Positions 2,095-42,754 of a DNA stretch of 64,000 bases are shown here, piece by piece. This DNA is from Rathayibacter agropyri (GTDB lineage: Bacteria; Actinomycetota; Actinomycetes; Actinomycetales; Microbacteriaceae), in contig NZ_JABRPL010000002.1 of assembly GCF_013249015.1 (NCBI RefSeq), forward strand, positions 592,030-656,029. The letters run 5' to 3'. The position numbers were made by a program, and so were the translations under genes. Within the stretch, counting starts at the first letter, position 1. Every line of letters begins with the position of its first letter. Under the pieces are notes generated by a model. That model was given only the letters and a program-made list of their open reading frames with translations, searched no databases and was not told the origin of the DNA.

Positions 2095-2099
2095 CGACG

Positions 2100-27255: not shown

Positions 27256-27302
27256 CTCCTCTCGCGCGCTGCGAGTAGGGCCGTGACGGGCGGAGAAGAG
27301 GG

Positions 27303-27959
27303 TCAGCTCGTGAAGGTCCAGGTGAGCGGGACCGAGGCGGACAGACCCTGGTAGGCGTTGCTCGCCGACTGATCGAGGGTCACGGCGATCGTGAAGGGTG
27401 TGCTCGTGCCGGGGGTGATCGGAGCCGTATTGAGTGTCTTGACGGCCGAACCGGCGAGGTTCGCGGCGGTGCCAGTGAAGACGGTGGACGAACCAGACGA
27501 GATGACCACCTTCAGCTTGGAGCAGAAGTCGGTCGCCGTTCCCGATCCCACGGCTGCAGCGTTGGCGCTCTGCTCGCAGGTCGCGCCGGGGGCCAGAGTG
27601 AAGGTGCGGGCGGCGGCGGTGCCGACGTTGGTGAGGGTGACAGCGGTAGAGACCGTCTGCCCGGGGACCATCGTGGTCGATCCGCCGAACTCGTTAATCG
27701 TGGAGCAGGAGGCGGTGTTGCTGCTGATCGAGCCGCCGTCGGTGCTGACGCAGGTGACCGGCTTGGAGCCCGTCGTCTTCTCCTCCATCACGAGCGAACC
27801 GGACGCCGCGGCATTGCCGACATTGGAGAGACCCGCGACAAAACCGGACAGGGTGCCGGACATCGAGACGGCGAGAAGAGCGGCAGCGGAGATGCTCGTG
27901 GCAAGAGGGAGGACAGCGAAGCGAACGCGCTTGCGCTTCGGTGCGACGTGGTTCGACAT
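27303..27959 (-). CDS. TasA/camelysin-like SipW substrate
   Basis: 218 aa from ATG 27959 with AGGAG at proper distance. A basic N-terminus (PKRKRVRF) and hydrophobic segment (LPLATSISAAALLAVSMSGT) end near the GNAAASGSL region typical of SipW cleavage. The mature protein is a Ser/Thr/Gly-rich beta-sandwich with VTLTNVGTAAARTFTLAPG. Related proteins build surface filaments in Firmicutes; filament formation here is inference. First gene of the coupled cassette with the SipW and LamG genes, 48 bases upstream of SipW. Confidence 0.75.
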   Translation of the reverse strand: MSNHVAPKRKRVRFAVLPLATSISAAALLAVSMSGTLSGFVAGLSNVGNAAASGSLVMEEKTTGSKPVTCVSTDGGSISSNTASCSTINEFGGSTTMVPGQTVSTAVTLTNVGTAAARTFTLAPGATCEQSANAAAVGSGTATDFCSKLKVVISSGSSTVFTGTAANLAGSAVKTLNTAPITPGTSTPFTIAVTLDQSASNAYQGLSASVPLTWTFTS

Positions 27960-28138
27960 GATGGGGCTCCTGATGGGGATGTAAGGGTGAACTGCTGCGC
28001 ACTCCGGGTGGGCAGAAACTCGATTGATGGACAAGTTACTTGATGGCAAAGCTACATGCGAATCGCAATTCTGGCGGGCGCTCCGAGGAGACGTCGGCGG
28101 CCCGTACGATGACGGAACCGCTACTCCGAGAAGGCCCG

Positions 28139-28606
28139 ATGATCTCCGAAAACCCCACCCGGCACGACAGCGACGATGACGCGCCCGCCGTGCAGGTGCG
28201 GCACGCCCTCCGCCTGCTCGAGAACGCCCAGCGGCACCTGCGCACGAGCATGGCGGCCAGCGTCGGCGTGGGCATCTCAGAACTCACCGCGCTCGAGGTC
28301 CTCGGCGAGTCCTCCGACCTCACGCCAAAGTGGCTCGGAGTCGAGCTCTCGCTCTCCACGGGAGCCGTCACCGCCCTGCTCGATCGTCTCGCGACCGCCG
28401 GATACGTCGACCGTGTCGCCAATCCGCAGGACCGCCGCAGCGTGCTCCTGCGCCTCACCCACTCCGGCACGCTCCTGCTCGCACGGGTCGACGAGCGCTA
28501 CAACGAGGTCAGTGCCCAGGTTCTGGAGGCGTCGCCGAGCCTGGGCGTCGTCGCCGAGGATTTAGCGCGGGCGGCGGCGGTCATCGTCGCGCACACGATC
28601 CACTGA
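28139..28606 (+). CDS. MarR-family transcriptional regulator
   Basis: 155 aa from ATG 28139, preceded by GAGAAGG; an open frame extends upstream to 28040 but without a ribosome site. Winged HTH with GISELTALEVLGESSD, SLSTGAVTALLDRLATAGYV (recognition helix) and the wing DRRSVLLRLT. Divergent from the TasA-like gene with 180 bases between them, so it could control the surface cassette; the ligand is unknown. Confidence 0.85.
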   Translation: MISENPTRHDSDDDAPAVQVRHALRLLENAQRHLRTSMAASVGVGISELTALEVLGESSDLTPKWLGVELSLSTGAVTALLDRLATAGYVDRVANPQDRRSVLLRLTHSGTLLLARVDERYNEVSAQVLEASPSLGVVAEDLARAAAVIVAHTIH

Positions 28607-28643
28607 CTGCGGATCAGGTGACGACACCGCCGCCAGGGTGCGC

Positions 28644-28976
28644 TCACTCGCGGTACGCAGCCGCAGCGGAGTCGAAGCTGGCGAGCATTCGGTTGAGGTT
28701 CGAGAGCTCGAGAACCATCGCGACCTGCTCACTGGGCGACGCGAGCCGCAGGTCCCCGCCGGCCTGGCGCGCAATCTTTAGTGCACAGACCAGGGCACCG
28801 AGGCCCGACGAATCCATGACCTTCACCTTGCTGAGCTCGACGACGATGCGCAGATTACCCGCGTCGATCGCGCGGCAGACGGCGGCACGCAGCTCCGGCG
28901 CGGAGGAGGCGGTAAGACGATCCCCGCCGTTCAGAACGGCGATGCCCGGCTCGATCGTCTCGGTCGTGATCGTCAT
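28644..28976 (-). CDS. STAS-domain anti-sigma factor antagonist
   Basis: 110 aa, one STAS domain (SpoIIAA/RsbV type). The phosphorylatable Ser is in KVKVMDSSGLGALVCAL at about residue 57. Such proteins release sigma factors by binding an RsbW-like kinase and are inactivated by its phosphorylation. ATG at 28976 behind AAGG. No kinase or sigma-factor gene is adjacent, so the partner must be elsewhere. Convergent with the MarR gene. Confidence 0.88.
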   Translation of the reverse strand: MTITTETIEPGIAVLNGGDRLTASSAPELRAAVCRAIDAGNLRIVVELSKVKVMDSSGLGALVCALKIARQAGGDLRLASPSEQVAMVLELSNLNRMLASFDSAAAAYRE

Positions 28977-29217
28977 GCGGCGTCCTTCTCGGAGAGGTCG
29001 GGAGGGCGGGGCTGGCGGGCGGATTCTCCCCCCACCGCGGCGTAGCGGCAACGGCCATCCCCGCGTCTCCTTCACCCCGTCGCAACGCCCGTCCTGGCGC
29101 GTCACTGCGACGACCGTAGCGTCCGCGCCGAACGCCCGCGACGAGAAGGGCCAGGCGTCCCTCTCTCGGGGTGGGCGTCGCAGGCACGCTGCGCGGCGCC
29201 CGTCGCTGGATGACGGC

Positions 29218-29322
29218 AGTACAGATCACCGCACTTCTGGTGGCACCAGTTCTGATGCCGCCACTTCTGATGACACCAGTTCTGATGACACCAGTACAGA
29301 TCACGGCAGTACAGTGCGGGAG
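29218..29322. repeat. Seven tandem 15-base repeats upstream of a MarR gene
   Basis: Seven consecutive 15-base units from 29218, consensus AGTTCTGATGACACC, alternating between AGTACAG and A(G/C)TTCTG versions; the last unit degenerates. The array ends 26 bases before the MarR start at 29348, so it spans its promoter region. Array of operator half-sites for the MarR protein is the simplest reading. The repeats can also be read as five-residue repeats on either strand, but no supported gene covers them. Confidence 0.75.
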
Positions 29323-29347
29323 TCGGTCACTCACCCAAGGAGCCTCC

Positions 29348-29806
29348 ATGCCACCTCCCCCTCAGGCGACGAGCGCACAGTCCGTCTCCAATCGGCTCGG
29401 CTCCTCCGTCAAGGCCGCGGAACAGGTCCTCATAGCCGCGAAGAGTCGCGCCCTGCGCCCTTTCGGATTGACGGTGCCGCAGTACGCCACACTGCTCGCC
29501 GTGCATATCACGCCGGATCAGTCCGCCGCCCAGCTTGCTCGGTCGGCGATGGTCGCTCCGCAGACGATGGCGACGATCATCGGCAATCTCGAGTCGAAGC
29601 AACTCATTCGCCGCGAACCGTCACCCCTGCACCGCCGCGTGCTCGTCACTCGGATCACGGCAGCGGGAACGAGTCTCGTGACCGAGGCGGATGCGGCAGC
29701 GAAGGCCGTCGAGGAGGAACTCGCAGGCCAGTTCACGCCGTCCGAACAGGCGCAACTGCGGCAGTTACTCCAGCGCGCGATCGATCATCTGCGCACGAAA
29801 GCGTGA
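29348..29806 (+). CDS. MarR-family transcriptional regulator
   Basis: 152 aa, ATG at 29348 with AAGGAG at ideal spacing. Winged-HTH core LTVPQYATLLAVHITPDQSA, recognition helix SAMVAPQTMATIIGNLESKQ, wing PLHRRVLVTRIT. Divergent from the STAS gene across about 370 bases containing the 15-base tandem repeats, which probably act in its own regulation. No catalytic target gene lies immediately downstream. Bases 29807-30040 show no recognisable gene. Confidence 0.88.
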   Translation: MPPPPQATSAQSVSNRLGSSVKAAEQVLIAAKSRALRPFGLTVPQYATLLAVHITPDQSAAQLARSAMVAPQTMATIIGNLESKQLIRREPSPLHRRVLVTRITAAGTSLVTEADAAAKAVEEELAGQFTPSEQAQLRQLLQRAIDHLRTKA

Positions 29807-30040
29807 GGTTGCGCCACGGCGAATAACAGAGTCCTGCGCTCCACTCTGCTCCATCGAGGGCACGGCGCCCCTCGCAGAGGCGGCCGCAGTTCTCTCGCGA
29901 ATCGAGGTCGGCCAGACGACGGGCACGTGGGTGCTGCTCCACCCGGTCGGCTGACCTCCAAGATGCCGCGGAGTACCACTCGACCGCCCTCGTCGCCAGG
30001 CCTCCCGGCGGTAGCGGAGGCTCAGTAGCGTCGCCCTGGC

Positions 30041-30080
30041 CGGATCGACCACTGGACACCCGGATCGACCACTGGACACC
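30041..30080 (+). repeat. Perfect 20-base tandem duplication upstream of the Cys-rich gene
   Basis: CGGATCGACCACTGGACACC occurs twice head to tail (30041-30060 and 30061-30080), ending 19 bases before the ATG at 30100. It could be a doubled regulatory site or a recent slippage duplication. Confidence 0.7.
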
Positions 30081-30099
30081 ACGACGAGAGGAACGGGCG

Positions 30100-30504
30100 A
30101 TGACCAGCACCAGCGACATAATCAGGACACACCCCGAGGAGCGGACCGGCGTCGATCCGGACATCCTCACCGCCTGCATCGACGCGTGTTTCGAGTGCGC
30201 GCAGGTCTGCACGGCGTGCGCCGACGCCTGCCTCAGCGAAGAATCGGTGGCTCACCTGGTGGCATGCATCCGCTCCGACCTCGACTGTGCAGATGTCTGC
30301 GGAGTCACCGGGGCAGTGCTCTCGCGCCGCGGCGCCCCCGGATCGGCCGCCGTTCGCGCGCTGGTCGAGGCGTGCCTGCTCGCGTGCCGCGCCTGTGCCC
30401 GACAGTGCGAGCAGCACGCGAGCATGCACGAGCACTGCCGGATCTGCGCTGTGGCCTGCCGCCGCTGCGAGCAGGCGTGCGAAAGCCTGCTCGCGGCACT
30501 CTGA
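30100..30504 (+). CDS. Cys-rich four-helix bundle copper-storage-like protein (Csp/DUF326)
   Basis: 134 aa with 18 cysteines, mostly in CxxxC spacings along predicted helices (ACIDACFECAQVCTACADAC; ACLLACRACARQC; CRICAVACRRCEQAC), plus HASMHEHC. This matches copper storage proteins, in which Cys side chains line a four-helix bundle and bind many Cu(I) ions. No signal peptide, so the cytosolic Csp3-like form. GAGAGGAACGG precedes the ATG. The adjacent biosynthetic operon is convergent and probably unrelated. Confidence 0.88.
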   Translation: MTSTSDIIRTHPEERTGVDPDILTACIDACFECAQVCTACADACLSEESVAHLVACIRSDLDCADVCGVTGAVLSRRGAPGSAAVRALVEACLLACRACARQCEQHASMHEHCRICAVACRRCEQACESLLAAL

Positions 30505-30543
30505 CCCGCACGCCGTCGAGAAACAGCACCCGACGCTCGGCCG

Positions 30544-31206
30544 TCACCCCGTCAGGAGCGGGTCTTCTGGCTGAGGTGTTCCACGGAGCCACGTCGCCGG
30601 CCCGTGACCAGGAAGCACGACGTCCGCGTGGTCGACCAAGCGGCGCACGAGCCGGATCGACCGCGCCAGAACGCGGGAGTCTCCTGTCGGCTGAATAGCC
30701 CGCGCAGGCGCCGACCCGAGATACGCGTCGCCCGTGCACATCAGTTCGCTTCTCTCGCCGAATAAGAACACCTGCGAGCCAGCAGTGTGACCAGGCGCAG
30801 CAACGGACTCCACGCGAAGCTCGCCTGCTGTCACGCGCGAACTCATCGCGTCGCGCACAACGCTCGGCATCACCCGGGGGTATCCGCGAAGCACGCTTGG
30901 CGGGAAATCGACAGGAAGACCAGCCTCCGGCTCTACCAGCATCTGCTGGTCCTTGTCGCCGACGAACACCGGCACCTCCATCAGGTCGGCGATCGGTTGC
31001 GCATCCCACGAATGATCCATGTGACCGTGTGTCAGCACCACGGCATGCACAGTCAGCCCCAGGCCGCGGCTCATCGCCATACACCACTCTCGGCTACCTT
31101 TGCCTGGATCCACGATCACCGCGTCGCGACTCTCCGACGCGAAGAGCACGTATGCGTTCGTGTCGAACCCCGCTCCGAAACTCTGTGACAAGAATTCGGT
31201 GCTCAC
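30544..31206 (-). CDS. Metallo-beta-lactamase-fold hydrolase, last gene of the AfsA operon
   Basis: 220 aa, glyoxalase II-like subgroup. Zinc site motif THGHMDHSWD at about residues 58-67, further ligands in APGHTAGSQVFLFG and MCTGDAYLG, and PGHG near residue 200. Possible roles in this operon are thioester hydrolysis (release from the acyl carrier protein) or lactone ring opening; sequence cannot separate these. GTG at 31206 overlaps the HAD stop by 4 bases, tying it to the pathway. Confidence 0.85.
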   Translation of the reverse strand: MSTEFLSQSFGAGFDTNAYVLFASESRDAVIVDPGKGSREWCMAMSRGLGLTVHAVVLTHGHMDHSWDAQPIADLMEVPVFVGDKDQQMLVEPEAGLPVDFPPSVLRGYPRVMPSVVRDAMSSRVTAGELRVESVAAPGHTAGSQVFLFGERSELMCTGDAYLGSAPARAIQPTGDSRVLARSIRLVRRLVDHADVVLPGHGPATWLRGTPQPEDPLLTG

Positions 31207-31856
31207 ACAATCCTCGACGAACTTCGATGAAACTCTGTGCGCCCGCCTTCACGCACCCACACGCCTGTCCCCACACTCTCGAGCATCGCCAGATCGGTCG
31301 GATGATCGCCGAAGGCAATGCACTCGGCCGGATCTATTCGGCGTTCAGCACAGTACGCGAGGACGGCATCCGACTTCGCCGGACCAATCATCGTTCGCGC
31401 TACGGTACCCGAGTACGTATCACCGACGAATGTCATGACGGAACACAGAACACGGTCAGCGTGGAGTTCCTTCGCTAAGGGATCAAGCACCACATCGAAC
31501 GAACCCGAAACCAGCACGATCTCGAATCCTTTGGCACGAAGTTCGTCGATCTCCGCCACAACGGGCTCGATGTAGAATCCCTCACCCCGCGAGGCTGTCG
31601 CGAACCACTCCTGTCCCGCGACTCGCACCTCCCGACGAGACAGACCCTTCCACAGAGAGTAATACGACGCATTAACCAACTCTCTCGGCGCATTCAATGG
31701 CAAGGAACCAACGAACTCATCCCACAGAGGAACGTCGCCATGCGTGTCATGAAAGTAATTGAGAAATTCACGCATGCTTTTCACAGAAACGACTGTCTCA
31801 TCGACGTCAAAGAACGCCGCCTGACGATGCGACCAATCTGCTCGAACTGCACTCAT
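31203..31856 (-). CDS. HAD-superfamily phosphatase (subfamily IB, SerB-like)
   Basis: 217 aa. HAD motif I FFDVDETVVSVKS at about residue 15, motif II VLVSGSF, and motif III/IV PAKSDAVLAYC then CIAFGDHPTDLAML. Removes phosphate from a small molecule. AfsA-type enzymes form a phosphorylated butenolide from a beta-ketoacyl donor and dihydroxyacetone phosphate, so a dedicated phosphatase fits that pathway (inference). ATG overlaps the acyl carrier protein stop by 4 bases. Confidence 0.88.
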   Translation of the reverse strand: MSAVRADWSHRQAAFFDVDETVVSVKSMREFLNYFHDTHGDVPLWDEFVGSLPLNAPRELVNASYYSLWKGLSRREVRVAGQEWFATASRGEGFYIEPVVAEIDELRAKGFEIVLVSGSFDVVLDPLAKELHADRVLCSVMTFVGDTYSGTVARTMIGPAKSDAVLAYCAERRIDPAECIAFGDHPTDLAMLESVGTGVWVREGGRTEFHRSSSRIV

Positions 31857-32083
31857 GAGCGATTGATGATTCGATCGGCCAGCATCCCCAGCGTTTCGTC
31901 GGCGACTATCTCATCCAGCGAGAGACGCACGCCGAAGAGTTGCTCAATCTCGAGAATGAGCTCCACGGCGAAGATGGAATCCACTTCCAACTCCGCCAAT
32001 GTCGAGTCTTCGCCCACTCGTTCACTAGGCAGATCGGAATAGGTTGAAATGATTTTCTTGAGGGCGAGCAGCACATCAGTCAT
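31853..32083 (-). CDS. Acyl carrier protein
   Basis: 76 aa, acidic, four-helix ACP. The phosphopantetheine attachment Ser is in ELEVDSIFAVELILEIE at about residue 37; note DSI rather than the housekeeping DSL. Presumably activated by the Sfp-type transferase encoded upstream in the same operon. Start overlaps the FabH gene by 8 bases and stop overlaps the HAD gene by 4. A second, pathway-specific ACP in addition to the fatty-acid one is expected. Confidence 0.93.
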   Translation of the reverse strand: MTDVLLALKKIISTYSDLPSERVGEDSTLAELEVDSIFAVELILEIEQLFGVRLSLDEIVADETLGMLADRIINRS

Positions 32084-33083
32084 TATTTGTACTTTCTGGT
32101 TCTTCTGTGGACAATTGTGGCCAGGTCAGCGCGACGGCACCCCAGGTAGTTCCTCCACCGTATGCAGCGAGAACCATACGGTCCCCCGCTCGCAATCGCT
32201 CCTCGCGCTCAGCCTGCGCCAGGGCGAGAGGTATAGAGGCAGCCGACGTATTTCCGACCTCAGCAATATTCGTCACCGCAACCGCTGAGTCGAGCCCAAG
32301 TTTCTTGGCCAGCGCCGCAATAATTCGAGCATTCGCCTGGTGCGGAACGAGCGCGTCAAGATCTCCCAAAGCCCACCCTTGCGCGGACACCACGGCGCGC
32401 ACCGCCTCTTCCATCCGAGTGACGGCATCCAAGAAGACGGCCGTTCCTTGCATCTGAAAGAACGGACTCGCTGGCACGCCCGATAGTGCTGCTGCCGAAC
32501 CGCCGCCCGGAATCCGAATCAGGTCCGCCTTGCTGCCGTCGCTTCCCAGTATGCTCTTCCCGACGACCCCCGGTTGCAACTCATGAGTCCGCTCGAGGAC
32601 TACCGCCCCCGCTCCGTCTCCAAAGATTGCAGCTGTCGTGCGATCCGTGGGATCAAGAATCGTACTGAAAATTTCCGCTCCGATGACGAGAACAGACGCA
32701 AACCTCCCTGACTCGATGAGCGAGGAGCCGACGGAAAGGGCATACACAAAACCGCTACAGACCGCCGAGATGTCGAACGCGGGGACGTTCGTCATTCCTA
32801 GCCCTGTCGCTACAGCAGGAGCCGTACCTGGGCACGGATAGTCTGGAGTCGTCGTCGCGAGAATGACCACATCGACACGATCGCGATCAGCCTTGTGAAG
32901 CGCCGCCCGCCCAGCTCGCACGGCCAGGTCGCTTGTTGACTCCGACCTACTGTGGCGACGTTGAGAAATACCAGTACGCTGGACAATCCACTCATCAGAC
33001 GTATCAAACGTCCGCGCTAGATCATCGTTAGTCACAATATTCTCAGGAAGCGCTTGTCCGATTCCGGTCAGGAGTGCATACAT
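32076..33083 (-). CDS. 3-oxoacyl-ACP synthase III (FabH-like)
   Basis: 335 aa with the complete KAS III triad: Cys in FDISAVCSGFVYAL at about residue 112, His in VPHQANARII and Asn in VGNTSAASIPLAL. N-terminal LPENIVTNDDLA and SDEWIVQRTGI are typical. It condenses an acyl-CoA with malonyl-ACP to give a beta-ketoacyl-ACP, probably on the ACP encoded next. Overlaps the monooxygenase gene by 16 bases. It would supply the acyl substrate for the AfsA protein (inference). Confidence 0.93.
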   Translation of the reverse strand: MYALLTGIGQALPENIVTNDDLARTFDTSDEWIVQRTGISQRRHSRSESTSDLAVRAGRAALHKADRDRVDVVILATTTPDYPCPGTAPAVATGLGMTNVPAFDISAVCSGFVYALSVGSSLIESGRFASVLVIGAEIFSTILDPTDRTTAAIFGDGAGAVVLERTHELQPGVVGKSILGSDGSKADLIRIPGGGSAAALSGVPASPFFQMQGTAVFLDAVTRMEEAVRAVVSAQGWALGDLDALVPHQANARIIAALAKKLGLDSAVAVTNIAEVGNTSAASIPLALAQAEREERLRAGDRMVLAAYGGGTTWGAVALTWPQLSTEEPESTNND

Positions 33084-34540
33084 GAATTATTTCTCTTCCT
33101 CCGAGTGGTAATACGCTCGACGTGACCGTCGGGGCGAACCGTCAAAAATCGGGGAAGCACGCCGAGACGGCGACGAACTCCGAGTGATGCATCAGCTCCG
33201 TACAGGACACTTCCGTCCTCCTGCAGCGGGTTCACAGACCGGCTGAACCGACCTCGCCAATCAACGACCCCACCTCGTAGCGGATCCACGACGTATGTCG
33301 TCGGCGAACCGTCATCGGCCAGGGGGAACCGCGTAGGAAACCTCCGACCAGAAAGCGAGCCGCGCGCAGATGTCGGATAGGATGTATCCAGTTGCCCGAA
33401 TCCAGCGGCGATGCGGTCGGCGACGCACGGTAGTCGAGAGCCGACCGAGTATAAGACTCGGAGCGACATTCGCCGGACGCGCCGGTCGACAAGCCCGAGT
33501 TGCGTCAAGTAGGCGCTTCGCCGCGCACTTTCCCGATAATCGTGCATTCGCTCTCGTTCGTAACTGTCCAGTAAGCCGTCCGGCGCCGATCCGGAGATCA
33601 CTTCAGCGAGCTTCCAGGCGAGATTCGCGGCATCCTGCAAGCCCGTGTTCATTCCTTGTCCGCCAGCGGGACTCAGCGTGTGGGCCGCATCACCGGCGAG
33701 AAACACGCGTCGCTTCCGGAAGTGCTCGGCATGCCCAAAACGCACGTCGAATACCGAAGAGTGAGCAAAATCGCGCAGATCGGTCCGGACGCCTGCCCTC
33801 GCCCGGAGGAGACGAACGAAGTCCTCTCTTCCCGGCGCGATCCGAGTCTCGGGAGGAACGCCCACAGCAATTCTGAACCGCGAGGCGCCGAAAGGGACGA
33901 GAGCGAGGGCGCCGTCGCGCCCGTAGTAGTAGGCAACATCAGCTTCGTTCAGGCTAGCGTCTATGGGGACATCCGTGATTGCGAACCGGATCGCACCGCC
34001 GGAGTTCATCAGGCGGATGCCACTGCGATCCCGCAGATGACTATGAGCGCCATCAGCGGCCACGAGCCAGTCGGCAGTCATCTCTCTTACGACGTGACCC
34101 TTGTGAAGACATCGGAGCGAGACACCGTGTACGTCCTGACTGACATCGACGACCTCAACCTGCCTGAGAACCTGCACACCGACCTCGATGGCTCGACTCT
34201 GCAGAATCCGCTCAGTAATGGGTTGAGCAAGACCGATCCCGAAGGGATATGACGTTGTATCGATCCGACCGAAATCGAACATCGCAAAAGAGCGGCGGGA
34301 GGTGTTGAGAGTGATTCGCGACAATCGATGGCCTGCTTCCAGGATCGCGCCCGCGACGCCTAGTCGATCAAGCAATTCGAGCTGCCTCGGCCAGATCGTG
34401 GTAGCTTTGCTCTGCACACCACCGCCTTCTCGTCGGTCGAGCAACGTGACCTCCACACCGCGCAAAGCGAGATCAATCGATATCGCCAAACCCACCGGAC
34501 CAGCCCCGACGACGACCACTTGCCTTCGCGCCGCCCTCAC
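33068..34540 (-). CDS. FAD-dependent aromatic-hydroxylase-type monooxygenase
   Basis: 490 aa, p-hydroxybenzoate hydroxylase fold. FAD-binding GxGxxG in VVVVGAGPVGLAISIDLAL at residues 8-26; conserved DG in VAADGAHSHLRDRSGI; and the second FAD motif FLAGDAAHTLSPAGGQGMN. The C-terminal about 120 residues likely form the thioredoxin-like domain of polyketide oxygenases. It may hydroxylate or perform Baeyer-Villiger-like oxidation of the pathway intermediate. GTG at 34540 overlaps the KAS III-like stop (GTGA). Confidence 0.9.
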   Translation of the reverse strand: MRAARRQVVVVGAGPVGLAISIDLALRGVEVTLLDRREGGGVQSKATTIWPRQLELLDRLGVAGAILEAGHRLSRITLNTSRRSFAMFDFGRIDTTSYPFGIGLAQPITERILQSRAIEVGVQVLRQVEVVDVSQDVHGVSLRCLHKGHVVREMTADWLVAADGAHSHLRDRSGIRLMNSGGAIRFAITDVPIDASLNEADVAYYYGRDGALALVPFGASRFRIAVGVPPETRIAPGREDFVRLLRARAGVRTDLRDFAHSSVFDVRFGHAEHFRKRRVFLAGDAAHTLSPAGGQGMNTGLQDAANLAWKLAEVISGSAPDGLLDSYERERMHDYRESARRSAYLTQLGLVDRRVRRMSLRVLYSVGSRLPCVADRIAAGFGQLDTSYPTSARGSLSGRRFPTRFPLADDGSPTTYVVDPLRGGVVDWRGRFSRSVNPLQEDGSVLYGADASLGVRRRLGVLPRFLTVRPDGHVERITTRRKRNNSCMHS

Positions 34541-35568
34541 TGGACAGACTCGGCTGCGATAAGCGTCAGAGTAAACCCGGCGCCGACACTTAAAAAGAGC
34601 CTCACCGAATCGTTGTCCTCCTCCTTTTCGGATTCCGAAAGGTTGGCGATCGTGTCCCCCGCTCCTAGATGGCCGGTCTGAGCGGCCAGATGACGTATGG
34701 CGAGACCGAACTCTTCCTCTAGCACCGGACGATAAGCACTATCTATTGTGTCGACCCCAACCCGCGGTACATAAACGTGCGAGACCGCCGGGTCGCCGAC
34801 GGGCAGGCCGATCTGGGCGTGAATCTTCGGAATAAGCGATCGAAGAGCGGAAGCGAAATGCTGTGTGAGTGATTCCTTTCCGTGACGAGCAAGGAACGCC
34901 CGCTTATGTGGCCGAACGAGATGTGGCACCGGCTCATCACTCGCCGAGCCGTACAACCCATCCGCAGGTCGATGCATGCTTTCCAACTCTGACAGTGCGA
35001 TTGTCTGCGACGCCAGAACCCGCATGAACGGAGGTCGGCGTGCCGGACCACCGAAAAGGCCAGCTGTCGCGCCATCCCCATATACGACGCCGTAGTCCCC
35101 GCCCCATCGATCGAAGGACGCATCAGGAAAGCGGTCAGCAGTGCAGACCATGACCATTGCATCTGGAGCTGATGTTGCAAGATATCGCTGCGCAAGATCA
35201 AGAGCGGTGCCACTACCATTACACATCGCGGAAATACCGATCGGTATTGCATTCGTCGCGCCAATACTCTGTGCGATGTAGTGGGCCGGCGACCAGAAGC
35301 TCGCCCCCTGGAAGAAGGTTGACGCGTAGAAGATGGCCGAGACATCTTCCGCACGGACTCTCGCGCCAGTGAGGGCATCACTGCACGCCCAAATAGCCAT
35401 GTCCGGCGCACTCAGGTCGTGCTCAACCGGTACTTGAGAGACGCCACAGGCGCTCCGATTCTTGCTCGAAAGCGCTCCCCTCGCCTCTGCATCTTTGGCG
35501 AGTTCTACCGACGTGGGTAGATACATGGCCAGCGCCGCAATAGTCATCGGAGGGACTGTGGTCGCCAC
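34537..35568 (-). CDS. KAS III-like enzyme with altered active site (acyltransferase candidate)
   Basis: 343 aa thiolase-fold protein. Start GTG 35568 follows GGGAGG at good spacing and overlaps the AfsA gene by 25 bases. The catalytic Cys is present (ISAMCNGSGTAL), but the canonical PHQAN is replaced by a VYVPRVGVD segment, and the Asn loop by QTGHLGAGDTIANL. The His and Asp of GHLGAGD may form a Cys-His-Asp arrangement like KAS III-type acyltransferases such as CerJ, which transfer acyl groups to oxygen instead of condensing carbon. That function is inference; a diverged condensing enzyme is the alternative. Confidence 0.82.
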   Translation of the reverse strand: MATTVPPMTIAALAMYLPTSVELAKDAEARGALSSKNRSACGVSQVPVEHDLSAPDMAIWACSDALTGARVRAEDVSAIFYASTFFQGASFWSPAHYIAQSIGATNAIPIGISAMCNGSGTALDLAQRYLATSAPDAMVMVCTADRFPDASFDRWGGDYGVVYGDGATAGLFGGPARRPPFMRVLASQTIALSELESMHRPADGLYGSASDEPVPHLVRPHKRAFLARHGKESLTQHFASALRSLIPKIHAQIGLPVGDPAVSHVYVPRVGVDTIDSAYRPVLEEEFGLAIRHLAAQTGHLGAGDTIANLSESEKEEDNDSVRLFLSVGAGFTLTLIAAESVQ

Positions 35569-36532
35569 TGGCTGACCTCCCCTTCTTCTCGCACCGCGAT
35601 CCTGTATTCCGTGAGAATCTCCCCGTCAGAGTCGCGAACATCTCCGTGAAAGGAACGACGGTCTTCGTCCTTGTGAGAGAGCAGCGAACGCAGCCTGGCA
35701 ACCACGTCTGTCTCGATGAACCGGTGGAAGACGAGGGTCCCCGACAGCAGACGCGGCGATACTCCTACCTGGAGCGCCGCAGCCTGGCGCGCAGCCTCGA
35801 GAACGACCATTCCCGGCACGTGGTCCTGTCCGTGCTCGAACATGCTCGGGTTGGAGAAGTGCGGCTCGACCACACACTCGAGGGTGTCTGCACCGGTGAT
35901 CACCGGGTCACTGATGACGATGTTCACGGGGTTGAGGCGTCCGACCGACCGCGCAAGGATCTGATTCACTTCAGTAAGTTCCACAGCGGGCTCGTTAGCG
36001 CCGCCGCGGGTCACAGAACTCCTTCTTAGGGCGGAATACACAGAAGGTGGGAGGAAGGTGGTATTGTGAGAAACTCGACCAATGGTTATCCCGTTGTGGA
36101 CGAGATCGACATCCGTGCTCACGGCGAGGGGGATGCCACGCCGATGACGTTCGATAGATGGGCGCGACACCAAGGTGACGGTACGTCTCTCTCCCAGCTG
36201 ATCGGCACTCATTTCATCGATGTCAAAATCGAGCCGATTGAGCACAAATTTGTAATCGAGCGGCACGCTGAGGTATTCATGAGCGATGCAGGACGCGGTC
36301 TGGCGAACCATCTCGATCAACACCAGCGGATCGGCACCTGATTCGCGGCCCAGATGGTCATTGAAATAGAGATTGCTTCGAGGAACCTGACCGGTTGAGA
36401 GAAAGAGATCACCCTGCTTGATGACCTGGCCCACGAGGAATATCTCACCGATGGTGTGTCGATGGGCGAACTGTGCGGAGACGCTACGATCGGAGGGATC
36501 TGTCCCGGACAGTGTCGTCTCCTGTGCCAGAG

Positions 36533-36536
<4 letters not shown>
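35544..36536 (-). CDS. AfsA-family A-factor biosynthesis (gamma-butyrolactone synthase) protein
   Basis: 330 aa with two AfsA hotdog repeats: the first around residues 25-150 (HRHTIGEIFLVGQ; GADPLVLIEMVRQTASCIAH), the second around 190-320 (FEHGQDHVPGMVVLEAARQA at 233-252). AfsA/ScbA proteins couple a beta-ketoacyl chain to dihydroxyacetone phosphate, the key step to gamma-butyrolactone signals. Start is TTG at 36536: GGGAG lies seven bases upstream and TTGA overlaps the reductase stop; a longer frame to 36689 would lie entirely inside the reductase gene. Length fits the family only with this TTG. Call is firm for family, inferred for product. Confidence 0.9.
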
Positions 36537-37477
<941 letters not shown>

Positions 37478-37504
37478 GACATGTCGTCCTTTCATCTTGA
37501 ATAG

Positions 37505-38032
37505 CTACTCGTCTGTGCCGACAGCGACGGCGATGACGGCGGATGGCGTGAGGTCCCGCACACATGAGCGGTCGATTCGAGGGATGGTGGCCTGTTCTGT
37601 GGGCCATGCCGTCCACGTCGGGAATTCAGAAGATAGTCCGTGTCCGCGGGCCTTTGCAGCCGCTTCTTTCAGCGCCCAGATACTGAGAAGTGCGGTACCG
37701 CGCATGTGCGGACGCAAAGTCTCGACGGCGGCAATTTCCTCTCTGCTACAGAAAACTCCACCGTGAGTCGCTGACTCCATCGGTCGTTGTCGCTCTCGTT
37801 CGATGTCCACGCCGATTGGCTGACGTCCAATTGCGAAGGCCCACATGCCCGGGGCGCGACTGAAGCTGATAGTGAGGGCGCTCGTGCCCCTGACCACCGG
37901 TGCTCCCGTGGCCAGCCGCGCGAGGGAGAGCCGACCGCTTGTGGCAACGGGCAAAAGCCCTGCCAGGGCTAAGGCCGTCGAGCGCGATTCAGCGTCTGCG
38001 CCGGACCTGCCCCAGACGGCGACGAATCCCAT
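37505..38032 (-). CDS. Sfp-type 4'-phosphopantetheinyl transferase
   Basis: 175 aa from ATG 38032 (alternatives GTG 38053 or longer). Motifs PIGVDIERERQRP, FCSREEIAAVE and the helix SIWALKEAAAKARGHGL are diagnostic; the Asp and Glu residues bind Mg and the Lys the CoA phosphate. It moves phosphopantetheine from CoA to a carrier-protein Ser, most likely the operon's own ACP. Shorter than Sfp itself (224 aa) because the N-terminal lobe is reduced. 27 bases from the reductase gene. Confidence 0.87.
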   Translation of the reverse strand: MGFVAVWGRSGADAESRSTALALAGLLPVATSGRLSLARLATGAPVVRGTSALTISFSRAPGMWAFAIGRQPIGVDIERERQRPMESATHGGVFCSREEIAAVETLRPHMRGTALLSIWALKEAAAKARGHGLSSEFPTWTAWPTEQATIPRIDRSCVRDLTPSAVIAVAVGTDE

Positions 38033-38124
38033 TTCACGCCAGATGGCCCTCACTCCTCGGGTCGACAAGGAGTGCGCCGCGGACACCCAGTGAGTGCGAC
38101 GGCGATGGCGAAGACCTCCGGTCG

Positions 38125-39567
38125 TCACGCCTGCGACTTCCCGGTCCGAAGGAAGCCGATGAGCACGAGGACAGCGATCGCGATGCAGACGGCCGCGTTG
38201 AGAAGCATCGCGCCGCTGAGAGCGGTCCCCGAGGTCGCCGCCGAGCCTAGTCCCTCTGCCGAGGCGATGACGGTGACCACCGCCGCGAGCACGGGTGTCC
38301 CCAGCGCGATCGCGACCTGCTGGCTGGTCGACGTCAATCCGGTCGCGAGGCCCTGCTCGCCATCCGGAAGACCCGAGGTGGCCGTGACGGTGTAAGCGAT
38401 GATGCTCGCGATGTGGCCCAGCGTCGCGACAGCCAGACCGAGGCAAATAATGAGGATCGAACCTGGATGATCGCCTGCGAAGGCAACGATGGCCGTTCCC
38501 ACGCCCTGAAGGACGAGAGCTCCGACCAAGACCCGAACCTGCCCGACGGCGCCGATCAATCTCGGTACGAAGAGCGCACCGACGACGGCGACGATGCCAA
38601 TGATGGCGATGACAGCACCCGTCGTCACGGGATCGAGGCCGAGAACGAGCTGCAGGAACAGCGTCGTCAGATAGGTGAACGACGACATCATCCCGAACGT
38701 TGTCAGCCCAGCGAGGTTCCCCCACCGCACATTCTTGCGCTTGAGAACAGCAAGAGGGACAAGGGGGTGAGAGCCGCGCAGTTCAATGAGCGCAAACAGG
38801 ACGACGAGAATGAGCGCGGCAGCGAATAACGTCAGAGCACCTGGATCACCGAACCCGCCGATCGCAGCACTGGACACCCCGAGCACGAAACAGGACAGGC
38901 TGAGAGTAATCGAGAGCGCTCCTGCAAAGTCGAGCCTTGTCGTGACGGCCGGACGCGATTCTGGAAAAAGGAACGGAGCGAACACGAGGACGAAAACAGC
39001 GACCGGCACATTGATCCAGAACGCGGCCCTCCACGAGAGGGACGAGGTGAGCGCACCACCGAGTAGCGCCCCGGTAGCGAAACCAGCAGAGAGGAGTGCG
39101 CCGTTGAGACCCAGAGCGCGGTCGCGCACGGGGCCTTCCTTGAAAGTCGTGGTGAGAAGAGCGAGGGCAGTCGGAGCCGCGGCAGCCGTTGCGAGTCCCT
39201 GCAGGACGCGAGCGAGAATGAGGATCCACGCGTCTGTCGCAACCGCTCCGACGACAGAACCGGCAGCAAGGAGCAGCATCGCCGCGAGGAGCACGCCTCT
39301 GCGTCCGGCGAGATCACCGAGACGCCCGAAGAACAGGCCGAGGCCGGCGGCGGGCAGGGTAAATGCAGTAACGACCCACTGAAGGTCGTTCAGTGGGATC
39401 CGAAGATCAACGCCGATGTCAGGAAGTGCGACGTTCAGTACCGAGAAGTCGACCGCAAGCATGAACGTCACGCCCATGAGGACGGTAAGTCGCCACCGGT
39501 CTCGAGGGACCATCCGTGTATCTCTCGGGTTGGCTGTGCCGACAACAGGTTGCGAACCACTACTCAT
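38125..39567 (-). CDS. MFS exporter, DHA2 (14-TM) type
   Basis: 480 aa with about 14 membrane segments. Motifs LAVDFSVLNVALPDIGVDL at the first segment, GRLGDLAGRRGVLL (motif A) and ARVLQGLATAAAAPTALALL (motif B), plus WINVPVAV. DHA2 members export antibiotics and signals by proton antiport. ATG at 39567 after GAGGAG. First gene of the minus-strand unit leading into the transferase and AfsA genes, so it may export the product; PadR lies divergently upstream. Confidence 0.9.
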   Translation of the reverse strand: MSSGSQPVVGTANPRDTRMVPRDRWRLTVLMGVTFMLAVDFSVLNVALPDIGVDLRIPLNDLQWVVTAFTLPAAGLGLFFGRLGDLAGRRGVLLAAMLLLAAGSVVGAVATDAWILILARVLQGLATAAAAPTALALLTTTFKEGPVRDRALGLNGALLSAGFATGALLGGALTSSLSWRAAFWINVPVAVFVLVFAPFLFPESRPAVTTRLDFAGALSITLSLSCFVLGVSSAAIGGFGDPGALTLFAAALILVVLFALIELRGSHPLVPLAVLKRKNVRWGNLAGLTTFGMMSSFTYLTTLFLQLVLGLDPVTTGAVIAIIGIVAVVGALFVPRLIGAVGQVRVLVGALVLQGVGTAIVAFAGDHPGSILIICLGLAVATLGHIASIIAYTVTATSGLPDGEQGLATGLTSTSQQVAIALGTPVLAAVVTVIASAEGLGSAATSGTALSGAMLLNAAVCIAIAVLVLIGFLRTGKSQA

Positions 39568-39805
39568 AAAAACTCCTCAAGGTGAGTGCGGGTCGTCACA
39601 GTACTCGGTCACCTGACAGGGCTCTGCTCTTGGCGGAGTCCGTCCAAAAAGTGGCGCACGAGGGATGATCGACGGTGTGTCCGTCGCACCTGGGTCCTCT
39701 ATCAGCAGCGGGCGACCGTTCATCTGTCCGCCATCGAGGAAGAGCAGTCGTTCACAGTCGGCGCCCATATCGCTGAGTATCGTTCGGGAGAAATAGGAGG
39801 TCATC

Positions 39806-40339
39806 ATGAACGGTTCGTCCACCGGTGCGTTCGGCGCCGGCACCCCCATCGAGAGCATCTGGCGCGCAATGGAGCAGGCCCGCTCTCGCCTGGAGAAGCG
39901 CGTCGGCTCCCGCGTCGGCCGCGGCGACGTGCGCGCGGCGGTGCTCGCGCTCCTCGCCGAGCAGCCGATGCACGGCTACCAGATCATCCACGAGATCGAG
40001 CAGCGCAGCGGAGGCGACTGGAAGCCGAGTCCCGGCTCCGTCTACCCGACGCTGCAACTGCTCGCCGACGAGGGCCTGATCGCGGCCGACGAGCAGAACG
40101 GCCGCAAGACCTACTCGTTGACCGACGCCGGCCGCGCACAGGTCGCCGACTCCGGCACCTCGACGCCCTGGAACGACTCGGACCACGTCGACTTCGGGGC
40201 GCTGCCCAAGGCAGGCATCGAACTCGCCCAGGCCGCGGCGCAGGTTGGACGCTCGGGCTCCCCCGAGCAGATCCGCAAGGCCGTGGCCGAACTCGAGGAT
40301 GTGCGTCGCCGCCTGTACGCGATCCTCGCGCAGGACTGA
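39806..40339 (+). CDS. PadR-family transcriptional regulator
   Basis: 177 aa. Winged HTH with AVLALLAEQPMHGYQIIHEI and GSVYPTLQLLADEGLI, then a C-terminal dimerisation helix (PEQIRKAVAELEDVRRRLYA). AGGAGG is six bases before the ATG. Directly followed by the UbiB-like gene (GTG five bases after its stop) and divergent from the DHA2 exporter. PadR proteins often repress neighbouring efflux genes, so the exporter/AfsA operon is a possible target; ATATCGCTGAGTATCG at 39768-39783 is a candidate site. Confidence 0.9.
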   Translation: MNGSSTGAFGAGTPIESIWRAMEQARSRLEKRVGSRVGRGDVRAAVLALLAEQPMHGYQIIHEIEQRSGGDWKPSPGSVYPTLQLLADEGLIAADEQNGRKTYSLTDAGRAQVADSGTSTPWNDSDHVDFGALPKAGIELAQAAAQVGRSGSPEQIRKAVAELEDVRRRLYAILAQD

Positions 40340-40344
40340 GCCGG

Positions 40345-42045
40345 GTGACCTCGGTCAGCCCGAACGCTGCGGGCGGCCGGGCACGCGAGGACCGGCGGCG
40401 CTACCGCCGGATCCTCCGCTTCGCCGCATGGCATCTCGCGGTGACCTGGCTCTTCGACCTGCTCCTGCCGCGCCTCGGCCTGTCCCGCGTCGCCGTGCGC
40501 ACCCGCCCCGGCCGGATGACACGGTTCGCCCGCAGCTTCCACGTGCTGGCGGTCGAGCTGGGCGGTCTGATGATTAAAGTTGGCCAGTTCATGTCGTCGC
40601 GCCTCGACGTCCTTCCGCCCGAGATCACTCGCGAACTCGAGGGCCTCCAGGACGAGGTGCCGCCCGTCCCGTTCCCGCGCATCCGCGCGCTGGCCGAAAC
40701 CGAGCTCGGAATGCCGCTCGAGCGCGCCTACGCCGGCGTCGAGGAGTTACCGGTCGCCGCCGCCTCGCTCGGCCAGGCGCACCGCGCGCTCCTCTCCCCC
40801 TCCGACGCCGCCGATACCGGGCACGCGACCGCGATCATCAAGGTTCAACGGCCCGGGATCGACGCGGTCGTCGAGGTCGATCTCGCCGCACTGCGCCGGG
40901 TCGGCGGTTGGCTCAGCCACGTGCGTCTCGTCTCCGACCGCGTCGATGCGCCCGCGCTGGTCGAGGAGTTCGCGGTGACCAGCCTGGAGGAAATCGACTA
41001 CCTCCAGGAGGCGGCCAACTCCGTGCGCTTCGCCACCGACTTCGCAGGCGACGCCCGGGTCGCGGTTCCCGCCGTGGTCTGGGAGCGCTCGACCCGCAAG
41101 GTGCTGACTCTCCAGGACGTCACGGCGATCAAGATCACCGACCACGACGCGCTGCGAGCGGCCGGCATCGACCCGCGCGACGTCGCTCCGGTCTTCGCGG
41201 CGGTGATGTTCGACCAACTGTTCACGAACGGCTACTTCCATGCCGATCCGCACCCCGGCAACGTGTTCGTCACTCCGACCCCCGGTGCCGAACTGCCGTG
41301 GCGGCTCACCTTCATCGACTTCGGGATGATGGGCGAGGTGCCGCCGAGCACCAGGGCTGGCCTGCGTCGGCTGCTGATCGCCGCTGCCTCCCGCGACGGC
41401 AAGGGGCTCGTCGATGCGGCGCGCGCGGTCGGCGTCCTCCTCCCCTCCGCCGACTCCCGCGAACTGGAACGGGCGATGACGCAGCTGTTCGCGCGGTTCG
41501 GCGGGATGGGCTTCGCGGAACTGCGGGAGGTGGATCCGCGCGAATTCCGCGACTTCGCCGTGCAGTTCGGCGACGTCGTGCGCTCACTCCCGTTCCAGTT
41601 GCCCGAGAACTTCCTCCTCATGATCCGCGCAATGTCGCTGACCTCGGGCGTGTGCAGCGCGCTCGACCCGGCCTTCAACCTCTGGGACTCGGTCGAGCCC
41701 TACGCGCAACAGCTCATTCGGGAGGAGCGCGGTTCCGTCGCCACGGACGTCGGTCGGCAGGCGGTCGACACGCTCGGCCTGCTCTGGCGCCTGCCGCGCA
41801 AGCTCGATGAGCTGACCGACCGGCTCGAGGACGGCACGCTCGCGGTCACGGTGCCGACGATCGAGCGCCGCCTGACCCGAATCGAGAGCACGATCCGTCG
41901 CGTCGTCTCGGCGGTGCTGTTCGCGGGCCTGTTGATCGCTGGATCCGTCGTGCGCCCGGACGACGGTGTGCTCGGCGCGCTGCTGATGGGTGTCTCGGTA
42001 CTGCCGCTGCTGCACGCGCTCCTGGCCCGCGGGCCGCGCGGCTGA
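40345..42045 (+). CDS. UbiB/ABC1-family atypical kinase or ATPase
   Basis: 566 aa from GTG 40345. The family KxGQ motif is in MIKVGQFMSSRLDVLP, the A-rich ATP loop in LPVAAASLGQAHRALL, ion-pair Lys in AIIKVQRPGID, catalytic HADPHPGNVFV and DFGMMGEVPP. Two membrane segments end the protein (VVSAVLFAGLLIAGSVV; LGALLMGVSVLPLLHALL). UbiB proteins support quinone or lipid metabolism at the membrane; in menaquinone-using actinobacteria the exact role is open. Coupled to the PadR gene. Confidence 0.9.
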   Translation: MTSVSPNAAGGRAREDRRRYRRILRFAAWHLAVTWLFDLLLPRLGLSRVAVRTRPGRMTRFARSFHVLAVELGGLMIKVGQFMSSRLDVLPPEITRELEGLQDEVPPVPFPRIRALAETELGMPLERAYAGVEELPVAAASLGQAHRALLSPSDAADTGHATAIIKVQRPGIDAVVEVDLAALRRVGGWLSHVRLVSDRVDAPALVEEFAVTSLEEIDYLQEAANSVRFATDFAGDARVAVPAVVWERSTRKVLTLQDVTAIKITDHDALRAAGIDPRDVAPVFAAVMFDQLFTNGYFHADPHPGNVFVTPTPGAELPWRLTFIDFGMMGEVPPSTRAGLRRLLIAAASRDGKGLVDAARAVGVLLPSADSRELERAMTQLFARFGGMGFAELREVDPREFRDFAVQFGDVVRSLPFQLPENFLLMIRAMSLTSGVCSALDPAFNLWDSVEPYAQQLIREERGSVATDVGRQAVDTLGLLWRLPRKLDELTDRLEDGTLAVTVPTIERRLTRIESTIRRVVSAVLFAGLLIAGSVVRPDDGVLGALLMGVSVLPLLHALLARGPRG

Positions 42046-42139
42046 CGCTCGCAGGGCCCGGCCCTGATCGGCGGAGATATGGTGAGCGTCGCGAAATCGG
42101 CCGACGCTCCTGCAACAGCCGCCCTGGTGTGCTCGAAGC

Positions 42140-42754
42140 ATGTACTCGACGTCCACCACCACCGCGTCCCCCGCCCGACGTCGCCGCACTCTCGCTGCCG
42201 CACTCGTGCTGGCGGTCGTGCTCCTCGTTGCCATGGTCGGAGCCGGATGGGTCGCCGCGACGACGCAGCGGCTCGACCCGGCGCTGGCCGCGCTGATCCC
42301 TGCCGATCAGCCGGGAGAGACGGACGGATTCATCGACGACGCCGCACCGATCTCCCCGTTCGACGACGACCTGCCTGCGATAGCGCGGCTCCGCCCGGCT
42401 CTCCGCACCGCGATGCAGGCCGCCGCGACCGACGCGCAAGCCGATGACGTCTCCTTCGTCGTCACGAACGGCTGGCGCAGCGAGCGCTACCAGCAGGCAC
42501 TGTTTGACGACGCCGTCCGCACCTACGGCAGCGAGGAGGCGGCGAGCCGTCTGGTCGCACCCGTCACCACGTCCCGGCATGTCTCGGGCGACGCCATCGA
42601 CATCGGCCACACCGACGCGGACAACTGGCTCAAGCGGCACGGCGCCGACTACGGGCTCTGCCAGATCTACGCGAACGAGATCTGGCACTTCGAACTCGCC
42701 ACGACACCGGGCGGCGAATGCCCGACGCTACTGCCAGACGCCAGCTGGGGCTGA
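42140..42754 (+). CDS. VanY-like D-alanyl-D-alanine carboxypeptidase (M15B)
   Basis: 204 aa. One N-terminal membrane segment (AAALVLAVVLLVAMVGAGWV) anchors an extracellular M15 domain. Zinc ligands are seen in SRHVSGDAIDIG (His and Asp) and IWHFE (His), with the substrate loop VTNGWRSERYQQALFDDA. It trims the terminal D-Ala of peptidoglycan stem peptides. No Van regulator genes are near, so it is likely a housekeeping wall enzyme rather than a resistance determinant. Confidence 0.9.
   Translation: MYSTSTTTASPARRRRTLAAALVLAVVLLVAMVGAGWVAATTQRLDPALAALIPADQPGETDGFIDDAAPISPFDDDLPAIARLRPALRTAMQAAATDAQADDVSFVVTNGWRSERYQQALFDDAVRTYGSEEAASRLVAPVTTSRHVSGDAIDIGHTDADNWLKRHGADYGLCQIYANEIWHFELATTPGGECPTLLPDASWG

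What the first reader, a model, noticed from the sequence alone, without database searches (positions are those of the whole stretch)
30544..39567. Self-contained AfsA (A-factor synthase) biosynthetic operon with its own FabH, ACP, transferase, oxygenase and exporter
Directly visible: ten consecutive minus-strand genes, with the eight from the aldo/keto reductase to the MBL hydrolase joined by overlaps (4 to 25 bases). Order: DHA2 exporter, Sfp-type transferase, aldo/keto reductase, AfsA, KAS III-like, FAD monooxygenase, FabH, ACP, HAD phosphatase, MBL hydrolase. Known: AfsA proteins join a beta-ketoacyl group to dihydroxyacetone phosphate; phosphatase and reductase steps follow in gamma-butyrolactone synthesis. 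Inference: FabH plus ACP make the beta-ketoacyl donor, AfsA condenses it, HAD dephosphorylates, the reductase and oxygenase tailor, the KAS III-like protein may acylate, and the DHA2 protein exports. Streptomyces systems borrow the fatty-acid machinery; a dedicated FabH, ACP and transferase fused into one operon in a Microbacteriaceae-like genome appears unusual and may make a new signal or antibiotic.
Basis: partly seen in the sequence, partly recalled or inferred. Interest (0 to 1): 0.88.

Follow-up and report, generated by a model that had tools for sequence, protein, structure and literature searches.

The report
Acquired gene cluster for a butenolide
A Rathayibacter genome carries a compact, horizontally acquired ten-gene set that most likely builds, decorates and exports a small butenolide-type natural product; its plan resembles known Streptomyces clusters, but this version's product is unknown.

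Summary
Ten minus-strand genes (39567 to 30544) form one tight operon: DHA2 exporter, Sfp-type transferase, aldo/keto reductase, AfsA, KAS III-like protein, FAD monooxygenase, FabH, ACP, HAD-IB phosphatase, MBL hydrolase. The active-site motifs checked are present, and all ten genes show purifying selection against the same operon in Rathayibacter iranicus. It is a low-GC island (60% against about 70%). Its KAS III-like gene is in 1 of 15 Rathayibacter genomes searched.

The AfsA groups with mostly receptor-less AfsA proteins, so a metabolite is likelier than a hormone. The KAS III-like protein has the Cys-His-Asp triad of CerJ/ChlB3 acyltransferases, so it most likely transfers an acyl group. 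A dedicated FabH and ACP are not unusual: the methylenomycin and sphydrofuran clusters have them. The FabH is closer to FabHs of some AfsA clusters and of AvrD clusters than to its relative's other FabH. An unnamed 9.2-Mb genome has AfsA, KAS III-like, FAD, FabH and ACP genes in the same order.

Verdict: a new variant of a known kind, a sphydrofuran-like toolkit with AfsA in AvrD's place. Product unknown; perhaps an oxidised, O-acylated short-chain acyl-butenolide or furan.

The parts
38125..39567 (-). DHA2-type MFS exporter, 480 aa
   Evidence: Pfam MFS_1 5.6e-52; TIGR00711 efflux_EmrB 157 bits, below its cut-off of 230; 96% identical in R. iranicus
37505..38128 (-). Sfp-type 4'-phosphopantetheinyl transferase, 207 aa from GTG 38128
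   Evidence: Pfam ACPS 5.3e-11; motifs GVDIE and WALKEAAAK; 91% in R. iranicus
36533..37495 (-). aldo/keto reductase, 320 aa
   Evidence: Pfam 6.3e-65; D57, Y62, K87, H129 at the places expected for the AKR tetrad (motifs; tetrad recalled)
35544..36536 (-). AfsA-family double-hotdog protein, likely butenolide synthase, 330 aa from TTG 36536
   Evidence: Pfam AfsA 2.3e-32, two stretches; NF041195 ScbA/BarX 177.1 bits, below cut-off 200; two conserved DH...E..RQ motifs; tree
34537..35568 (-). KAS III-like protein, CerJ/ChlB3-type acyltransferase by its triad C116-H300-D305, 343 aa
   Evidence: PDB phmmer ChlB3 9.2e-30, DpsC 5e-29, CerJ 8.3e-22; active-site comparison
33068..34540 (-). group A flavoprotein monooxygenase, 490 aa
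   Evidence: Pfam FAD_binding_3 6.4e-68; PDB matches include rifampin monooxygenase, PgaE, CabE, GrhO5
32076..33083 (-). FabH (condensing KAS III, C109-H248-N278), 335 aa
   Evidence: TIGR00747 347 bits over cut-off 292; motifs; tree
31853..32083 (-). acyl carrier protein, Ser36 in DSI, 76 aa
   Evidence: Pfam PP-binding 1.9e-12; motif
31203..31856 (-). HAD-IB phosphatase, 217 aa
   Evidence: Pfam HAD 1.1e-25, TIGR01488 58 bits over cut-off 45; DVDET motif
30544..31206 (-). metallo-beta-lactamase-fold hydrolase, glyoxalase II-like, 220 aa
   Evidence: Pfam Lactamase_B 1.4e-16; HGHMDH; PDB 2xf4 1.9e-19
30100..30504 (+). left boundary: DUF326 cysteine-rich gene, outside the operon
   Evidence: Pfam DUF326; its shortened relative in G003 lies 131 bp from PadR
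39806..40339 (+). right boundary: PadR regulator followed by the ABC1-kinase gene, outside the operon
   Evidence: Pfam PadR 3.5e-22; window 39.7-42.0 kb matched in 15 of 15 Rathayibacter genomes

Best explanation
A horizontally acquired biosynthetic operon for a small exported butenolide-derived metabolite. Most likely mechanism: the Sfp-type transferase arms the ACP; FabH condenses a short acyl-CoA with malonyl-ACP to a 3-ketoacyl-ACP; AfsA joins this to dihydroxyacetone phosphate to give a phosphorylated 2-acyl-3-hydroxymethylbutenolide; the HAD-IB enzyme removes the phosphate; the aldo/keto reductase and the flavin monooxygenase reduce and oxidise the core; the KAS III-like protein moves an acyl group from the ACP or CoA onto a hydroxyl through Cys-His-Asp; the MBL hydrolase acts as editing thioesterase or lactonase; the DHA2 protein exports the product. 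Shown here: gene content, order, motifs, purifying selection, signs of acquisition as an island, evolutionary company of AfsA and FabH. Inferred: every reaction, the acyl chain and the product.
For: Families and motifs. AfsA-type enzymes make phosphorylated butenolides from 3-keto thioesters and DHAP (PMC7756379 passages). Window FabH is 51-56% identical to FabHs of five AfsA clusters (L092, L093, L096, L132, L133) and four AvrD clusters (L146, L148, L150, L152), but 37-38% to the other FabH of R. iranicus and the only FabH match of G003; these nine, the window and R. iranicus form an 11-row clade, support 88/95. AfsA, KAS III-like, FAD, FabH, ACP are collinear in G421/L093. Receptor neighbour in 1 of 26 rows of the AfsA clade against 21 of 28 outside (Fisher 4e-8). 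KAS III-like site: of 45 distinct rows, 27 have Cys-His-Asp without a second His (the window is one), 14 have Ser with a second His (DpsC pattern), 4 are other. GC 60.1%; 182 overlapping same-length stretches elsewhere in the window have a minimum of 67.2%.
Against: No reaction or product was tested. AfsA is only 28-34% identical to the three plasmid cluster relatives aligned and the Rathayibacter pair sits on a branch of 1.98, so acceptor or acyl donor could have changed. NCBI's ScbA/BarX cut-off is missed. Eight of 13 AfsA-cluster FabHs (L001, L002, L094, L095, L126-L129) lie outside the FabH clade of the window, whose support of 88/95 is under the tree tool's star mark of 95/80. Six related loci scanned (L086, L087, L092, L093, L095, L096) have a FabF-type KS that is missing here. 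Of 10 AfsA-centred loci in the same subclade, 6 have FabH and 0 the KAS III-like gene on the fragment; much of the co-occurrence comes from loci fetched because they had the KAS III-like gene. In L002 and L123 the catalytic Cys of the KAS III-like protein is Gly or Ala.
Confidence: 0.7

Rival explanations
1. A gamma-butyrolactone signalling system: the operon makes a hormone read by a TetR-type receptor, as A-factor or SCB do.
For: AfsA family membership; an aldo/keto reductase and phosphatase could finish a butyrolactone (inference).
Against: No ScbR-type receptor was detected in the 64-kb window; the AfsA clade is nearly receptor-less (1 of 26); FabH, ACP, PPTase, oxygenase, acyltransferase and exporter exceed what A-factor synthesis needs (recalled). 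R. iranicus has a separate AfsA beside a weak ScbR-like gene (70 bits) and a HAD gene that fits the signalling role better (L055). The rest of the window's genome could not be searched.
Confidence: 0.12
2. AfsA here uses another acceptor, for example a pentulose as AvrD/MmyD are thought to do, or another triose, giving a sphydrofuran- or syringolide-like furan or lactone rather than a DHAP butenolide.
For: Long AfsA branch; much of the toolkit, including the FabH lineage, is shared with AvrD clusters such as L150.
Against: Studied AfsA-family enzymes are reported to use DHAP (PMC7756379 passages); AvrD is not among the ten proteins and was not found in R. iranicus.
Confidence: 0.12
3. The KAS III-like protein loads an unusual starter onto the ACP (ChlB3-like role) rather than making an ester, so the novelty lies in the acyl chain. 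This is a variant of the best explanation, not exclusive of it.
For: ChlB3, the best PDB match, transfers 6-methylsalicylate to an ACP (PMC9573744 passages); the gene lies between AfsA and the FAD/FabH/ACP genes.
Against: FabH can prime itself from acyl-CoA (recalled); CerJ with the same triad makes esters. Not decided by sequence.
Confidence: 0.35
4. A decayed or silent relic without function.
For: No promoter-like site in front of the operon in a simple sigma-70 scan, which may not suit actinobacterial promoters.
Against: Ten open genes, Ka/Ks 0.11-0.43 between two species, same order retained.
Confidence: 0.03

Closest known systems
Sphydrofuran cluster (GI-9, Streptomyces ambofaciens, PMC11195616 Table 2) and its look-alike L150
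   Same: MFS exporter, KAS III-family protein, aldo/keto reductase, FAD monooxygenase, ACP, FabH, a butenolide synthase and a phosphatase; in L150 the KAS III-family protein has Cys and GHMGGVD
   Different: AvrD instead of AfsA, histidine phosphatase instead of HAD, hotdog thioesterase instead of MBL hydrolase; extra antibiotic-biosynthesis monooxygenase and carboxymuconolactone decarboxylase; no PPTase in the published table; the KAS III-family protein of L150 is only 24% identical to the window's
Methylenomycin cluster (PMC12593393) and its furans (mmfL, mmfH, mmfP)
   Same: Dedicated ACP (MmyA) and FabH-like MmyC are proposed to feed a butenolide synthase; MmfL is an AfsA homologue
   Different: Proposed condensing enzyme of the antibiotic is AvrD-like MmyD with a pentulose; other tailoring enzymes; the mmf genes make separate inducing furans
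Unnamed or unassigned AfsA clusters in Actinomycetes: L093 (G421), L094 (G592), L095 (G609), L087 (G577), L092 with L131 (G617, AfsA about 17 kb from FabH), L001 (Streptomyces sp. NBC_00503 plasmid)
   Same: AfsA with varying subsets of FabH, ACP, KAS III-like, FAD, HAD, AKR and MFS genes; L093 keeps the five-gene order; L095 and L089 also have an MBL gene
   Different: FabF-type KS in the six loci scanned for it (L001, L094 and L126-L129 not scanned); low AfsA identity; no product known to me
A-factor/SCB/virginiae butanolide systems (AfsA, ScbA, BarX)
   Same: AfsA family enzyme
   Different: No ScbR-type receptor in the window, misses the ScbA/BarX cut-off, other clade than most receptor-linked AfsA rows, dedicated acyl supply

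Membership tests
AfsA family (PF03756) | Pfam gathering score, two hotdog stretches | tested here: met
   112.3 bits against 24, two stretches
ScbA/BarX gamma-butyrolactone synthase (NF041195) | NCBI equivalog cut-off 200 bits | tested here: not met
   177.1 bits
Gamma-butyrolactone signalling locus | ScbR-type receptor beside afsA | tested here: not met
   none in the window with an HMM of four annotated ScbR proteins at 1e-10
Gamma-butyrolactone signalling locus | product binds a receptor and controls genes | not testable with these tools
   needs the compound
CerJ/ChlB3 KAS III-like acyltransferase | Cys-His-Asp triad in place of Cys-His-Asn | tested here: met
   C116, H300, D305 correspond to ChlB3 C113, H296, D301
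CerJ/ChlB3 KAS III-like acyltransferase | acyl transfer to alcohol or ACP | not testable with these tools
   needs assay
Beta-ketoacyl-ACP synthase III (FabH) | TIGR00747 cut-off, Cys-His-Asn | tested here: met
   346.9 against 292.1 bits; C109, H248, N278
Sphydrofuran-type furan cluster | AvrD family butenolide synthase | tested here: not met
   no AvrD match among the ten proteins; none found in R. iranicus
Sphydrofuran-type furan cluster | FabH, ACP, KAS III-family, FAD, AKR, phosphatase, MFS set | tested here: met
   (phosphatase of another family)

The most novel reading that the evidence does not exclude
The butenolide synthase is a swappable part: one kit (a FabH lineage, ACP, KAS III-like acyltransferase, flavin monooxygenase, reductase, phosphatase, exporter) has been run with AvrD and a pentulose in some actinomycetes and with AfsA and DHAP in others, and a Rathayibacter has acquired the AfsA version in a small form, making an O-acylated oxidised acyl-butenolide of a new structural type that acts on plants or competing microbes.
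Probability: 0.3. Interest if true: 0.65.

Novelty: new variant of a known kind. Interest (0 to 1): 0.5.

Why it matters
It points to a set of AfsA clusters that look like metabolite factories rather than hormone loci, suggests sequence clues for telling the two apart (receptor neighbour, AfsA clade), and places one in Rathayibacter, a genus of grass-associated plant pathogens best known for a tunicamycin-like toxin (PMC6965331). The product would belong to a class with active members: the butanolide premethylenomycin C lactone is reported as a potent antibiotic (PMC12593393 passages).

Tried and rejected
Looked for the operon in phages (AfsA protein: none), IMG/VR (AfsA protein, close relatives only: none) and, as DNA, in plasmids (none). 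PDB search with AfsA gave only weak ribosomal S5 matches that I take as chance. Considered that the KAS III-like protein might be AvrD: rejected. Considered a signalling locus: weak. Considered that the FabH is the host's own copy moved: not supported. My home-made gene caller chose several wrong frames; it only served to find candidates. In one search profile labels for FabH and the KAS III-like protein blurred; one search replaced them. In one search, 8 of 47 rows were taken in a wrong frame and two were repeats; redid it with 45 distinct rows. Of 57 AfsA matches, 3 short ones were left out of the tree; some rows carry translated stretches upstream of the gene, and 396 of 1121 columns were kept. 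Paper searches for Rathayibacter with butyrolactone and with antiSMASH, R. iranicus with gene cluster, and sphydrofuran/AfsA/AvrD showed no report of this operon in the listings or in the passages that I read; I saw passages or one section, never a whole paper. Subscription papers, nr, MIBiG and antiSMASH were not searched.
Full report
WHAT IS THERE. The ten minus-strand genes exist as described. With AfsA starting at TTG 36536 and the Sfp protein at GTG 38128, every junction is an overlap of 4-25 bases except a 9-base gap between the Sfp and reductase genes. The motifs that I looked for are present in ACP, FabH, KAS III-like, HAD, MBL, Sfp, reductase and flavoprotein (motif meanings recalled).

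WHERE IT IS. A scan of GTDB contigs with the KAS III-like protein, which finds close relatives only, gave one locus, Rathayibacter iranicus. Window 26000-42754 is collinear with it at 92% DNA identity. The window is 68% GC; a published table gives R. agropyri 68.0, R. iranicus 67.1 and R. toxicus 61.5% (PMC6965331 passages), so R. toxicus is unlikely; R. agropyri is a guess. No whole genome is held for the window.

AN ACQUIRED ISLAND. The operon is 60.1% GC; 182 overlapping same-length stretches elsewhere in the window have a minimum of 67.2% and a mean of 70.1%. The KAS III-like gene is found in 1 of 15 Rathayibacter genomes. The neighbouring PadR/ABC1-kinase DNA is matched in 15 of 15. In G003 a shortened DUF326 gene and the PadR gene are 131 bases apart, where the window holds the operon. 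In six other genomes fetched (L049-L054, L049 with little context) no DUF326 match lies beside PadR, so the empty site rests on one genome. AfsA is found in 20 of 398 Microbacteriaceae genomes; among their short loci (about 3 kb), only those of R. iranicus show the KAS III-like gene. Ka/Ks between window and R. iranicus is 0.11-0.43 for the ten genes. The R. iranicus FabH (326 aa) and AfsA (322 aa) end slightly earlier.

PROBABLY NOT A HORMONE LOCUS. I collected 54 AfsA proteins: the window, R. iranicus, plasmid hits, Microbacteriaceae loci, and the loci. The sample is not random. In the tree the window and R. iranicus lie in a clade of 26 (support 97/95), within a subclade of 20 (94/97), on a long branch. 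A ScbR-type receptor gene lies within about 4.5 kb in 1 of 26 rows of that clade and 21 of 28 outside it (Fisher 4e-8); a second locus of the clade, L003, has a receptor farther off on the fragment. The rows are related and contexts differ (19 of the 28 outside loci are about 3 kb, which makes finding a receptor there harder), so the p-value is only a guide. The 64-kb window has no such gene by that test.

FABH AND ACP. The window FabH is 37-38% identical to the other FabH of R. iranicus and the only FabH match of G003, but 51-56% to FabHs in AfsA clusters L092, L093, L096, L132, L133 and AvrD clusters L146, L148, L150, L152. With the Rathayibacter pair these form an 11-row clade (88/95); the other 8 of 13 AfsA-cluster FabHs lie elsewhere. 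AvrD occurs in 9 of 394 Actinomycetes genomes searched; 4 of 9 AvrD fragments fetched have such a FabH. L150 shows the order of the published sphydrofuran cluster: AvrD, FabH, ACP, flavoprotein, aldo/keto reductase, KAS III-family protein with Cys and GHMGGVD, MFS; a thioesterase-like and an RHG-motif phosphatase-like ORF lie in the expected places by eye. In methylenomycin the proposal is that MmyC makes acetoacetyl-MmyA for AvrD-like MmyD (PMC12593393 passages). Hence the claim that a dedicated FabH and ACP are unusual does not hold, while the inferred role of FabH and ACP gains support.

THE KAS III-LIKE PROTEIN. Best solved relatives are ChlB3, DpsC and CerJ. ChlB3 uses Cys113-His296-Asp301, shared with CerJ, whereas DpsC uses Ser-His-His (PMC9573744 passages). 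The window has C116, H300, D305 and no second His. Of 45 distinct rows aligned, 27 have Cys-His-Asp without the second His, 14 have Ser with it, and 4 differ: Gly (L002), Ala (L123), Ser without the second His (L103), Cys with the His changed (L111). So this protein most likely transfers acyl groups; whether to an alcohol or to the ACP is open.

RELATED CLUSTERS. In 394 Actinomycetes genomes, 81 match the KAS III-like profile at 1e-12 and 57 the AfsA profile at 1e-6; some weaker KAS III-like places are FabH genes, for example in G592, G658 and G616. Of 40 KAS III-like-centred fragments fetched, some overlapping, 6 have AfsA (L086, L087, L093, L094, L095, L123). L093 has AfsA, KAS III-like, FAD, FabH, ACP in the window's order, then a FabF-type KS and a reductase, with HAD further on (its FAD and FabH were placed by tblastn only). 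Of 10 AfsA-centred loci in the same subclade, 6 have FabH and 0 the KAS III-like gene on the fragment, though for two of them (L131, L138) such a cluster lies about 12-25 kb away on the same contig. The kit is mixed and matched, not fixed. The window version lacks the FabF-type KS seen in six related loci, which suggests one condensation and a short acyl chain (inference).

PATHWAY. Family knowledge and reported AfsA chemistry (PMC7756379 passages) give: acyl-CoA plus malonyl-ACP to 3-ketoacyl-ACP, condensation with DHAP to a phosphorylated butenolide, dephosphorylation, reduction, oxidation by a flavin monooxygenase whose solved kin include polyketide and rifampin oxygenases, acyl transfer, export. 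AfsA beside a HAD-IB gene is also reported in Chromobacterium (PMC12114271 passages), which fits the phosphatase step. None of these steps was tested.

VERDICT. Real, complete, conserved under selection and probably acquired; ordinary in its parts, uncommon in its combination and host; product unknown.

Noticed in passing
L055 (G001:C19) 1441-3085: R. iranicus has a second AfsA gene beside a HAD gene and a weak ScbR-like gene (70 bits), a better candidate for a signalling locus.
   Followed up: partly
L048 3155-3349 and window 30100-30504: The DUF326 gene at the operon's edge is much shorter in G003 (64 against 134 codons).
   Followed up: no
L094/L089 (G592), L095/L088 (G609): Two KAS III-like genes in one neighbourhood, one next to AfsA and one 12-14 kb away.
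   Followed up: no
L002 12968-13999 and L123: KAS III-like proteins on fragments with AfsA that have Gly or Ala in place of the catalytic Cys.
   Followed up: no
L146, L148, L150, L152 and L092, L093, L096, L132, L133: One FabH clade (88/95) holds FabHs of both AvrD and AfsA clusters.
   Followed up: partly
window 42805-43728: Possible AraC-type regulator (27.2 bits against 27) just beyond the collinear stretch with R. iranicus, where similarity falls to 75%.
   Followed up: no
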